A stretch of 64,000 nucleotides of DNA, from the NCBI RefSeq assembly GCF_900099675.1, contig NZ_FNDQ01000007.1, positions 1-64,000 of the forward strand, in the 5' to 3' direction. The stretch comes from Myroides phaeus (GTDB lineage: Bacteria; Bacteroidota; Bacteroidia; Flavobacteriales; Flavobacteriaceae). Position numbers and translations under genes: made by a program. Positions 4,839 through 33,870 of this stretch are shown one piece after another. The notes beneath the pieces were generated by a model. It searched no databases. It saw nothing but the letters and a program-made list of their open reading frames with translations, and was not told the DNA's origin. Position 1 is the stretch's first letter; every line of letters begins with the position of its first letter.

Positions 4839-5030
4839 TGTCCTAATGTGTGTGAAAGTACTCTTTTGAAAGTAGAAATAGGTAAGCTGTTTAAAAAATG
4901 AAGCTTGAATTGCTGATATAAGATGCTCAAAAGTATATAAAAGCAGAAAATGTGGGTTGTTTTTAAATAAAGGCGAATTAGCAGGAAGGTAGCAAATACG
5001 GGGCTTTCCAGAGTTTTAAACGGAGGTTAA

Positions 5031-5122
5031 TCGTAAATGAGTCGTAGATAAGTCGTATTTTGTTCGCGAAAAAGGCCTTTAGGTGAGGTATCTACGACTT
5101 ATCTCCGAGTTATCTCCGACTA
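5031..5122. repeat. palindrome built from 11-base CG modules (copy 1)
   Basis: The left arm has TCG at 5031, 5042 and 5053, exactly 11 apart. The right arm has CGA at 5095, 5106 and 5117, also 11 apart. The arms are imperfect reverse complements and enclose a centre of about 35 bases containing the palindromes TTCGCGAA and AAGGCCTTT. A related palindrome lies at 33571-33671. No named element family recognised. Confidence 0.75.
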
Positions 5123-5245
5123 ATGTACATATGAGGTTATGTCAATCCCTTTGTTTATAAGGGATTGCGGAGGTTGGAGTAAAAAAGTGGTACGGAGTTA
5201 ATAGTGCATTTGATAGCAAATGATGTCAAAATAACCACTTGTCGG
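5031..5245 (+). repeat. interspersed composite repeat, copy 1
   Basis: The palindrome is followed by AATCCCTTTGTTTATAAGGG (5143-5162), an AGTGG block, ATAGTGCA, and GATAGCAAATGATGTCAAAA (5212-5231). The same blocks in the same order occur on the opposite strand at about 33440-33671. The shared centre matches over 29 bases without a mismatch by eye. Confidence 0.7.
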
Positions 5246-32390: not shown

Positions 32391-32906
32391 ATGTTTCATA
32401 GATATATTAAATTAGGTATAGCTGGGCTATTGTTTGCAACAGCGATTTGGCAATTTGTAGAAGGAGGAATTGGAAATGGAATTTTCTTATTGCTTTTAAT
32501 GGCAATCGTAATATTGCTTTACTACAAAAATGAGTTTATCCTGTTAGCTTTCTTAAAATTGAGAAAACAAGACTTTGACGGAGCTCAAAAATGGTTGAAT
32601 AAAATTAAGAATCCTGAAACAGCTTTAGTTCGCAAACAGAATGGTTACTATAACTATTTAATGGGAATTATGACATCTCAAACTAACTTAAATGCTTCTG
32701 AAAAATATATGAAGAAAGCAGTAGAGTTAGGATTGAATATGGATCAAGATTTAGCAATGGCTAAATTACAGTTAGCAGGTATTGCAATGACTAAACGCAG
32801 AAAGCTTGAGGCTCAAAAATTATTGGGTGAAGCTCAAAAATTAGACAAGCAAGGAATGCTAAAAGATCAAATCAAAATGATGAAAGAACAAATGAAGAGA
32901 TTTTAA
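32391..32906 (+). CDS. membrane protein with TPR-like C-terminus, unknown function
   Basis: 171 residues. Two adjacent hydrophobic helices (about 8-25 and 28-48) are followed by a cytosolic helical region with TPR-like spacing (DFDGAQKWLNKIKNPETA, YYNYLMGIMTSQTNLNASEKYMKKAVELG, AKLQLAGIAMTKRRKLEAQKLL). Conserved hypothetical of flavobacterial type. A TAACTTTG box at 32352-32359 may drive it. No partner evident. Confidence 0.7.
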   Translation: MFHRYIKLGIAGLLFATAIWQFVEGGIGNGIFLLLLMAIVILLYYKNEFILLAFLKLRKQDFDGAQKWLNKIKNPETALVRKQNGYYNYLMGIMTSQTNLNASEKYMKKAVELGLNMDQDLAMAKLQLAGIAMTKRRKLEAQKLLGEAQKLDKQGMLKDQIKMMKEQMKRF

Positions 32907-32931
32907 TTAAATCACTCATTTTAAGATATCG

Positions 32932-32964
32932 AAAGCCGTACATTTTATGTGCGGCTTTTTTTTA
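32932..32964 (+). terminator. terminator of the TPR-like membrane protein
   Basis: AAAGCCGTAC / GTGCGGCTTT stem followed by T. Confidence 0.85.
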
Positions 32965-33179
32965 TGCCTATACTTGCTTGTTGTAATTAATAACAATAGC
33001 AAGTAGCAGTGCTATGTGAATAAACTAAAAACAAGGGATAGGCTTATATTAACTTTTGTGCTCTCGCCTTTATGACAACAAAATACTTGTTGTTTTCCAC
33101 TTAAATATAGTTGTTTAGTGTACAAATGCTGTTTTCTGTATCACAGTAAACACGGGGCTTACAGGAGTTTTAATTGCAC

Positions 33180-33286
33180 CATGTACCACACTAGTACCAC
33201 ACAACGCCCACATTCGCTCGGAAACAGGGGGTGTTTTCCGAACATCTCTCGAACTTGTGTGGTGTCAGTGTCGAACATGGTACGAC
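33180..33286. repeat. large palindrome of 11-base CGAAC modules
   Basis: The centre is a tight hairpin (CGGAAAC, 7-base loop, GTTTTCCG). In the right arm CGAAC-type pentamers start at 33239, 33250, 33261 (here GGTGT), 33272 and 33283, all 11 apart. The left arm pairs imperfectly with it (GTACCACACTA, GTACCACACAA units). Same architecture as the palindromes at 5031-5122 and 33571-33671, but different hexamer spacers. Confidence 0.75.
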
Positions 33287-33439
33287 TATGATTAAAACCA
33301 CAGTTGAGTTATAATAAACGGATATTGCTGTTTTACAAGGATATCAAAGAACTTAGCAAGCTTGTATGAGGGTGATAAGCAGAACAAATGTCTGTTATAT
33401 CTAATGCAAAAGTAGAATAGCCCTAACAAAGAAATTGGC

Positions 33440-33671
33440 AAAGCGGTTATTTTGACATCATTTGCTATCAAATGACATCATCTGCACTATAAACTATGTC
33501 CCACTTTTGTACTCAATCCTCTCTGAACCCTTATATATAAAGGGATTGAGATGGTTTTAAATGACATTTAGTCGCAAATAAGCCGTAAATAAGTCGTAAT
33601 TACCTCACCTAAAGGCCTTTTTCGCGAACGAATTACGACTTAATTCCGAGGTAATTCCGACTTAATGCCGT
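33440..33671 (-). repeat. interspersed composite repeat, copy 2 (inverted relative to copy 1)
   Basis: Read on the minus strand it gives the same block order as 5031-5245: palindrome, AATCCCTTTATATATAAGGG, AGTGG, ATAGTGCA, GATAGCAAATGATGTCAAAA, AATAACC. Divergent between blocks but nearly exact within them. Confidence 0.7.
33571..33671. repeat. palindrome built from 11-base CG modules (copy 2)
   Basis: The right arm has CG at 33636, 33647, 33658 and 33669, 11 apart, with spacer hexamers TTAATTC/TAATTC-like. The left arm has TCG/CCG units at the same period. The centre (about 33600-33630) holds AAAGGCCTTT and TTCGCGAA, identical to copy 1 but in the opposite direction. Confidence 0.75.
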
Positions 33672-33738
33672 TTGAGATAGTAACGAATACAGGTTAAGGC
33701 CAGTGGTTATAAGGGTTTGAAGCAATTTTGTTTAAAAA

Positions 33739-33850
33739 GTATAAACAACAAAACGCTTGAATATTATACCCAAGCGTTTTGTTGTTTTATAAAAAATGTA
33801 TTATTTAATTTCTTCAGCTATAAATATTTATTTTACTGAAGGGGATTTTT
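33739..33850 (-). repeat. duplicate of the prfC 3' end and terminator (decayed copy)
   Basis: Gapless 112-base match to 34786-34897, about 12 mismatches by eye. In the functional copy these bases encode the last residues of release factor 3 (VKLRFTSEEIK) and its terminator; here the reading frame is broken. The 17-bp hairpin AAACAACAAAACGCTTG / CAAGCGTTTTGTTGTTT (33743-33787) survives and probably terminates the gene at 33871. Confidence 0.8.
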
Positions 33851-33870
33851 TTGAAAAAGGTAACAAATGA

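What the first reader, a model, noticed from the sequence alone, without database searches (positions are those of the whole stretch)
33180..33286. Long palindrome whose arms are tandem 11-base CGAAC modules
In the right arm the pentamers begin at 33239, 33250, 33261, 33272 and 33283, exactly 11 apart, and the left arm pairs with them. A period near one helical turn suggests one protein face docking on successive modules, or a structured RNA/ssDNA. I do not recognise a named element with this design. Being outside genes and GC-richer than its surroundings, it may be part of a small non-autonomous element.
Basis: seen in the sequence. Interest (0 to 1): 0.72.

Follow-up and report, generated by a model that had tools for sequence, protein, structure and literature searches.

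The report
Spaced 11-bp-phased palindromic DNA arrays
This bacterium and a sister species carry dozens of similar, mostly intergenic palindromes built from 7-base boxes repeated every 11 bases; the boxes change together between species and the known sites lie far apart along the chromosome, which suggests landing pads for an unknown protein with a genome-wide job.

Summary
The palindrome is real and one of a family: 27 distinct BLAST places in its own genome, 31 with later finds, 46 known in sister species G233. Each copy is a dyad-symmetric array: a 25-26-bp core (TTCGGAAAA-N7/8-TTTTCCGAA) with three 11-bp modules per side, each a 7-bp box plus 4-bp spacer. The arms share a consensus with little copy-specific covariation, arguing against RNA or ssDNA structure. 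Between the sister species, box positions 1,3,5,7 differ at 5.6%, spacers at 18.1%; positions 2,4,6 shift one way (own TACCACA-type against TTCGAGA-type, 42 to 4). Of 31 own sites, 28 are occupied in G233, one is a clean 417-bp absence, two undetermined. The closest two of 46 G233 sites are 18.7 kb apart (0 of 50,000 random placements), though the list is incomplete. The exact core occurs in 9 of 398 genus genomes. Best reading: binding arrays for an unidentified oligomeric DNA-binding protein with a chromosome-scale role. No protein was found; a mobile-element origin with target immunity is a serious rival. The papers searched showed no such family.

The parts
33167..33298 (.). HP1: complete palindromic array, outer motif GTTTTAATT ... 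ATTAAAAC
33217..33242 (.). Core: inverted half-sites CTCGGAAAC-N8-TTTTCCGAA (family consensus TTCGGAAAA-N7/8-TTTTCCGAA)
33184..33216 (+). Left arm: three 11-bp modules TACCACACTAG, TACCACACAAC, GCCCACATTCG
33243..33275 (-). Right arm: three 11-bp modules (minus strand, outward) TTCGAGAGATG, CACCACACAAG, TTCGACACTGA
33446..33557 (.). Block next to HP2, repeated in the genome (12 places with the query 33300-33560), containing about 10-bp TGACATCATT/TGCTATCAAA repeats
33559..33673 (.). HP2: second palindrome of 11-bp modules (AGTCGTAAATA type), arms 33559-33601 and 33631-33673
5030..5125 (-). Another HP2-type array in the window (limits approximate) with part of the adjoining block (5139-5240)
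32931..32959 (+). Terminator-like hairpin after the upstream gene, outside the array
33743..33787 (-). Terminator-like hairpin after the convergent downstream gene, outside the array

Best explanation
The palindrome is one of some 30-45 dispersed, dyad-symmetric binding arrays for a dedicated sequence-specific DNA-binding protein, not yet identified. Each arm offers four half-sites at 11-bp pitch (three modules plus the core half-site), and the two core half-sites are 21-22 bp apart, so about eight subunits could line up on nearly one face of the helix. The protein reads box positions 1, 3, 5 and 7 (T-x-C-x-A-x-A) strictly; positions 2, 4 and 6 drifted together from TTCGAGA to TACCACA in this lineage, as expected if the protein's specificity changed. 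The arrays' wide spacing suggests a chromosome-scale task (domain organisation, segregation or nucleoid marking) rather than regulation of neighbouring genes. Shown: family, anatomy, lower divergence at alternate box positions, directional shift, little pairing covariation, wide spacing of the known G233 sites. Inferred: that a protein binds, its stoichiometry, and the chromosomal role.
For: 27 distinct own-genome places; exact core in 9 of 398 genus genomes; register score 0.897 (own) and 0.889 (G233) at offset 0 against at most 0.41 at the other offsets from -5 to +5; 27 orthologous pairs: positions 1,3,5,7 35/624, positions 2,4,6 72/468, spacer 113/624, directional 42:4 with 26 other differences; 25 modules and 15 loci shifted one way against 2 and 2; little copy-specific covariation; 46 known sites on the G233 chromosome, minimum gap 18.7 kb, 0 of 50,000 random placements, analytic P 4.6e-7.
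Against: No protein identified. Palindrome identity between sister species (0.863) is not above that of flanks (0.875 and 0.896), so constraint shows only at box positions. One site is cleanly absent from the sister species. Own-genome spacing is only mildly non-random (670 of 20,000 for HP1). The G233 list is incomplete: if five unseen sites lay at random the spacing P would be about 0.03, and one hit of the HP2-adjoining block at 1,617 kb, not counted, lies about 15 kb from a counted site. Box positions, letter sets and the spacing test were chosen after looking at the data. Arms of the seven more distant genomes are looser (register score 0.731, other offsets up to 0.488). Weak pair-specific matching exists in own modules 1 and 2 and G233 module 1 (10, 13 and 12 of 1000 permutations as high).
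Confidence: 0.5

Rival explanations
1. Remnants of a non-autonomous mobile element whose ends are integrase- or transposase-binding arrays (arm-type repeats). Wide spacing would come from target immunity, and the box shift from adaptation to a changed recombinase.
For: Copies share sequence beyond the palindrome (530-667 bp among four copies, one to a few hundred bp among twelve others). A 417-bp presence/absence difference bounded by imperfect direct repeats beginning GATACCT. Direct TACCACA-N4 or TTCGG-N6 arrays elsewhere can lie next to tyrosine integrases: of 8 neighbouring proteins tested, 4 matched PF00589 (3 over the cut-off), one with a Tn916-type DNA-binding domain (L054); they were partly picked because they looked like integrases.
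Against: 28 of 31 sites occupied in the sister species. Own genome has 3 PF00589 proteins of 298-308 aa, none nearer than about 11 kb to a known array. No terminal inverted repeat or shared target duplication was established. The 26-bp form of the exact core is absent from the viral collection. 4 of the 8 proteins tested beside arrays elsewhere had no integrase domain.
Confidence: 0.27
2. Structured RNA or bidirectional terminator: the palindrome acts as an RNA hairpin, 11 bp being one turn of A-form RNA (recalled).
For: Inverted symmetry; 12 of 31 own sites between convergent genes; DNA fold z -2.45.
Against: Spacers and outer modules do not covary between arms beyond their consensus; the terminator scan did not report HP1, while separate terminator-like hairpins lie on both sides; no Rfam match at E up to 1 overlaps HP1.
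Confidence: 0.1
3. Neutral palindrome family shaped by slippage of 11-bp units and exchange between modules, without function.
For: Exact 11-bp differences at L018/L188, L026/L218 and L029/L223; whole-module swaps; spacers evolve faster than flanks, 18.1% against 9.4%, with an excess of complement flips.
Against: Three-fold lower divergence at box positions 1,3,5,7 than in spacers; 12 of 28 modules with an A/B change, in either direction, kept an identical spacer, so these changed by substitution rather than exchange; the 42:4 direction; the wide spacing.
Confidence: 0.13

Closest known systems
SlmA- and MatP-type chromosomal binding sites (SBS, matS)
   Same: Dispersed, specific sites, tens per chromosome, for a dedicated chromosome protein (SlmA 12-bp palindrome 50 times, matS 13 bp 23 times; passages of PMC3116907)
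   Different: Single short sites there; here about 90-130-bp arrays of eight phased half-sites with species-specific boxes; no binding protein known here
REP/BIME elements with RAYT (TnpA_REP)
   Same: Intergenic, palindromic, species-specific, many copies
   Different: The one RAYT found in the genome with PF01797 (C47:64,611-65,126) is flanked by other REP-like repeats; HP1 is larger and has an 11-bp modular design
Arm-type sites of Tn916-like tyrosine integrases
   Same: TACCACA-N4 direct repeats with 11-bp pitch lie beside an integrase with PF02920 (L054); that they are its arm sites is inference
   Different: Single direct arrays there; here dispersed inverted arrays with a palindromic core and no such integrase found
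11-bp direct-repeat boxes of PhoB/OmpR-type regulators and the parC centromere of plasmid R1 (recalled)
   Same: 7+4 or 11-bp repeated units bound side by side
   Different: Promoter or plasmid loci, direct repeats; not a dispersed dyad-symmetric family

Membership tests
REP/BIME with RAYT | Elements flank the RAYT gene | tested here: not met
   Sequence around the RAYT shows other palindromic repeats and no HP1; nearest known HP1 about 5 kb away
REP/BIME with RAYT | 21-65-nt hairpin with GT[AG]G foot | tested here: not met
   HP1 is a 132-bp array with outer motif GTTTTAATT; arms not held by pairing; the definition is from passages of PMC6006769
Structured RNA | Compensatory covariation between arms | tested here: not met
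   Permutation test on 85 copies from nine genomes (28 of the 31 own copies entered), with weak exceptions in modules 1-2
Intrinsic terminator | Stem followed by T-run | tested here: not met
   HP1 not reported in the scan of 32900-33870; other copies were not scanned
MITE / non-autonomous element | Presence/absence polymorphism with target duplication and terminal inverted repeats | tested here: inconclusive
   One clean 417-bp difference with imperfect direct repeats; no terminal inverted repeat defined
Tyrosine-integrase attachment site | Adjacent integrase with arm-binding domain | tested here: not met
   3 PF00589 proteins in the genome, all on contigs that bear arrays, at about 11 kb (C19), 46-51 kb (C37) and 58 kb (C53) from the nearest known ones; arm domains were not searched in them
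SlmA/MatP-type chromosomal binding sites | Dispersed, specific sites with non-random chromosomal layout | tested here: met
   with the detection caveat; no macrodomain bias was tested
SlmA/MatP-type chromosomal binding sites | Dedicated binding protein and chromosome phenotype | not testable with these tools
   Needs pull-down, ChIP and genetics

The most novel reading that the evidence does not exclude
Probability: 0.33. Interest if true: 0.88.

Novelty: new variant of a known kind. Interest (0 to 1): 0.72.

Why it matters
If it holds, it is a clean natural case of many chromosomal binding sites changing their code together within one short branch, with the intermediates still visible (TTCGACA, TTCCACA, TACCAGA; and the sequences). 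It would also give this group of bacteria, whose chromosome-organising sites are little known (recalled), a set of candidate sites that can be tested directly by pull-down, ChIP and Hi-C.

Tried and rejected
RNA family search: no match at E up to 1 overlaps HP1. RAYT mobilisation: the RAYT has its own repeats. Intrinsic terminator: HP1 not reported. Same modules in other taxa: 21 genome loci and 8 viral loci with three TACCACA boxes, in varied organisms; some lie beside integrases, many do not (by eye). TTCGG arrays in viral contigs: 10 loci, one of them beside an integrase and what looks like a tRNA (L210; the tRNA by eye). Samples without any period-11 array at the criterion used: G010 400 kb and G022 400 kb, G073 200 kb; G138 had 2 in 200 kb. 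Origin avoidance: a 258-kb gap around the GC-skew switch near 965 kb looked special, but an array missed by the first search lies at 967,234, so the idea was dropped. Literature: TAACTGA heptamer repeats (PMC4679880, abstract and passages) differ in sequence and design. Paper searches (listings only, plus passages) showed no description of this family. Searches were for comparison systems.

Dropped or missing rows: three own copies (L014, L029, L034) fail the core finder and are absent; L032 has no flank match and L011 no synteny in G233, so they count as undetermined; 6 of 162 modules with alignment gaps were left out. An earlier count said 23 of 31 orthologous sites; searches show 22, which is used here.

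Full report
Observation. The sequence at 33180-33286 contains an imperfect palindrome with an 11-bp period. CGAAC is exact at 33239, 33250 and 33272, but 33261 reads GGTGT and 33283 reads CGACT. DNA folding is moderately better than shuffles (z -2.45, 3 of 200). Among 27 loci of the own genome, chosen by similarity, stretches self-similar at period 11 numbered 18, against 1 at period 8 and 0 at the other periods 7-19 (24 of 33 positions). In the unselected window the same criterion gives 2 at period 11 (both HP2-type), 2 at period 14 and 1 at period 7; the window's HP1 copy does not pass it.

Family in the own genome. A BLAST search of the whole assembly (2,967,042 bases, 58 contigs) gave 33 matches, which are 27 distinct places because palindromes match on both strands. 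Four more copies came from later searches (L041, L180, L198, L199), so 31 are used. A second family, HP2 (modules of the AGTCGTAAATA type), occurs at 13 places (24 matches). The window element carries HP1 and HP2 about 260 bp apart, and a further HP2 lies near 5030-5125. Four copies (L009-L012) are alike over 530-667 bp (81.7-88.9%), and twelve others share flanks of one to a few hundred bp.

Anatomy. Aligning copies on the core shows TTCGGAAAA-N7/8-TTTTCCGAA, flanked outward by three modules of 11 bp per side: a 7-bp box and a 4-bp spacer. In 28 own copies the common boxes are TACCACA (70 of 168 modules), TTCGAGA (19) and TTCGACA (16); in 24 copies of seven more distant genomes TTCGGAA, TTCGGGA and TTCGGGG lead. 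The two core half-sites stand 21 or 22 bp apart, so the whole stays close to one 11-bp register. Information per position in the own genome alternates: 1.30, 0.56, 1.39, 0.79, 1.45, 0.95, 1.52 bits for the box, then 0.45, 0.86, 0.20, 0.39 for the spacer. In the distant genomes the pattern is weaker and does not alternate in the same way (0.80, 1.37, 0.53, 0.63, 0.57, 0.36, 0.21).

Distribution. The exact core pattern occurs in 9 of 398 sampled genomes of the genus: G000 10, G233 10, G138 6, G311 6, G269 4, G173 2, G142 2, G020 1, G322 1. The control, the same pattern reversed but not complemented, is itself a hairpin and occurs once or twice in about 60 genomes by my count of the listing (2 in G000, 1 in G233), so the genomes with one or two cores are not above control level by number alone; their flanks do show TTCG-type modules by eye. 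A looser scan gave 28 cores in 259 kb of own loci (chosen for arrays), none in 200 kb of G073, and 16 weak ones (2-3 mismatches, without modules by eye) in 800 kb of G010 and G022. None of 39 relatives (24 of the genus, 15 of the order) matched HP1 at E 0.001.

Not a hairpin. If base pairing mattered, a left arm should match its own right arm better than the right arms of other copies. For 28 own, 33 G233 and 24 other copies this was tested by 1000 permutations per segment. Most of the 24 segment tests show no excess. Exceptions are own module 1 (10 of 1000 permutations as high), own module 2 (13), G233 module 1 (12) and, marginally, the G233 module 2 spacer (49). The symmetry is therefore mainly that of half-sites sharing a consensus. 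The terminator scan did not report HP1, and separate terminator-like hairpins flank the element.

Comparison with the sister species. G233 has a single contig of 3,107,673 bases; the 22 syntenic stretches are 84.6-97.5% identical, 18 of 22 at 92% or more. Of 31 own sites, 22 have the array at the same place by flank alignment, five more by a second search (L009, L010, L012, L019, L024) and one more by alignment (L030). L020 is absent there, as a clean 417-bp difference between direct repeats beginning GATACCT. L011 lacks synteny and L032's flank was not found. Thus 28 of 31 are occupied, 1 is empty and 2 are undetermined. The palindrome as a whole is no better conserved than its flanks (0.863 against 0.875 and 0.896; 22 pairs). 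At the window site in more distant genomes, G020 has only 63 bp between the same two genes, G138 has transposase-like ORFs (by eye), and G173 has an 11-bp-modular palindrome of another sequence (GAGTCCATAGT, by eye).

Selection and shift of the code. In 27 pairs with six modules each (156 of 162 modules without gaps), box positions 1,3,5,7 differ at 35 of 624 sites (5.6%), positions 2,4,6 at 72 of 468 (15.4%) and spacers at 113 of 624 (18.1%); flanks differ at 1,414 of 14,975 (9.4%). At positions 2,4,6 the own genome has the TACCACA letter where G233 has the TTCGAGA letter 42 times, the reverse 4 times, with 26 other differences. By module the counts are 25 to 2 and by locus 15 to 2. The letter sets were chosen after seeing some of these pairs, and changes within a module are not independent. 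Twelve of 28 modules with such a change have an identical spacer, so those were substitutions and not exchange of whole modules. Since the other genomes carry TTCG-type boxes, the shift most likely happened on the own lineage; this polarity is an inference. Exact 11-bp differences are seen at three loci, and three neighbouring modules differ in type at L021/L243. Spacers evolve faster than flanks and show more complement flips (46% against 24% of differences), which I cannot fully explain.

Spacing. Known HP1-type sites on the G233 chromosome number 46: 37 distinct places, six further core hits, the window-site orthologue (position approximate), 967,234 and the L030 orthologue (position calculated). 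Some weak BLAST places among them (1,479,677; 2,059,877; 2,276,364; 2,837,749) were not inspected by eye. The smallest gap is 18.7 kb, the mean 67.6 kb and the largest 176 kb. None of 50,000 random placements had so large a minimum, and 22 of 50,000 had so low a coefficient of variation (analytic P 4.6e-7). With only the 37 places the P is 5.6e-6. Random loss of detection would not create this pattern, but the list is incomplete: 1 of 3 HP1 arrays in 540 kb searched with the 27 own copies was missing from it, and if five unseen sites lay at random, P would be about 0.03. HP2-type arrays were not counted; in those 540 kb there are an HP2 hit at 1,036,780 and a hit of the adjoining block at 1,617,176, the latter about 15 kb from a counted site. 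In the fragmented own genome the test gives 670 of 20,000 (HP1, minimum 15.4 kb) and 345 of 20,000 (HP1+HP2, minimum 12.2 kb, HP2 next to HP1 not counted apart). The search tool does report close hits separately (three within 6 kb in G073).

Gene context. By a simple ORF caller, 31 own sites are 12 convergent, 11 tandem, 2 divergent, 4 inside an ORF of 100 aa or more (not checked as real genes) and 2 undetermined; 29 G233 sites are 11, 12, 5 and 1 inside. Background gaps of 150 bp or more are 32 convergent, 71 tandem and 45 divergent. The arrays lean to convergent gaps, unlike promoter operators; no test was made.

Mechanism. The anatomy fits an oligomer docking box by box at 11-bp pitch on both arms of a dyad. 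Alternate-position conservation hints at a regular protein element lying along the groove (inference). The shift of boxes at 15 of 17 changed loci in one direction fits a change of specificity in one trans-acting reader. The spacing fits a chromosome-scale role or, as a rival, insertion with target immunity. A lead for the second view is that 11-bp TACCACA and TTCGG arrays elsewhere can lie beside tyrosine integrases, one with a Tn916-type DNA-binding domain (L054, PF02920 E 3.5e-14; L210, PF00589 E 1.8e-22); of 8 neighbouring proteins tested 4 matched PF00589 and 4 did not. The own genome has three PF00589 proteins of 298-308 aa, two XerC/D-like by eye.

Comparison with the known. SlmA sites (50 copies of a 12-bp palindrome) and matS (23 copies of 13 bp) are the nearest functional analogues (PMC3116907, passages). 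REP/RAYT was tested and not met. PhoB-type 11-bp boxes and the parC repeats of plasmid R1 are recalled likenesses only. Searches of open papers showed no account of this family; subscription journals are largely missing from that library.

Noticed in passing
window 33446-33557; L009/L248 and L012/L253: Block beside HP2 with imperfect 10-bp repeats (TGACATCATT, TGCTATCAAA) that differ by one 10-bp unit between the sister species at two loci.
   Followed up: partly
L037-L040 (contig ends C55, C37, C21, C31): HP2 units or their block sit a few hundred bp from contig ends that share a long common sequence, perhaps beside rRNA operons (a guess, not tested).
   Followed up: no
L164:4612-5127 (own C47:64,611-65,126): A REP-associated tyrosine transposase with its own tandem palindromic repeats (GGGGTAGACC... 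and GGGGGCGAAC...), distinct from the arrays.
   Followed up: partly
L127:11625 and L131:7074 (G138), L159 about 7200 (G173): Another 11-bp-modular palindrome type (GAGTCCGTAGT / GAGTCCATAGT), in G138 next to what looks like an insertion-sequence end; it may be the counterpart of HP2.
   Followed up: partly
L050:1944-2038, L048:3353-3447, L068 and L074: Longer runs of TACCACA-type boxes at 11-bp pitch in viral and genome contigs, without an integrase noticed nearby.
   Followed up: no
palindromes in 27 own/G233 pairs: Complement flips (A-T, C-G) make up 46% of spacer and 64% of box 2,4,6 differences against 24% in flanks.
   Followed up: no
L168 (own C37:84908-85459): A 308-aa third tyrosine recombinase, not obviously XerC or XerD by eye.
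   Followed up: no
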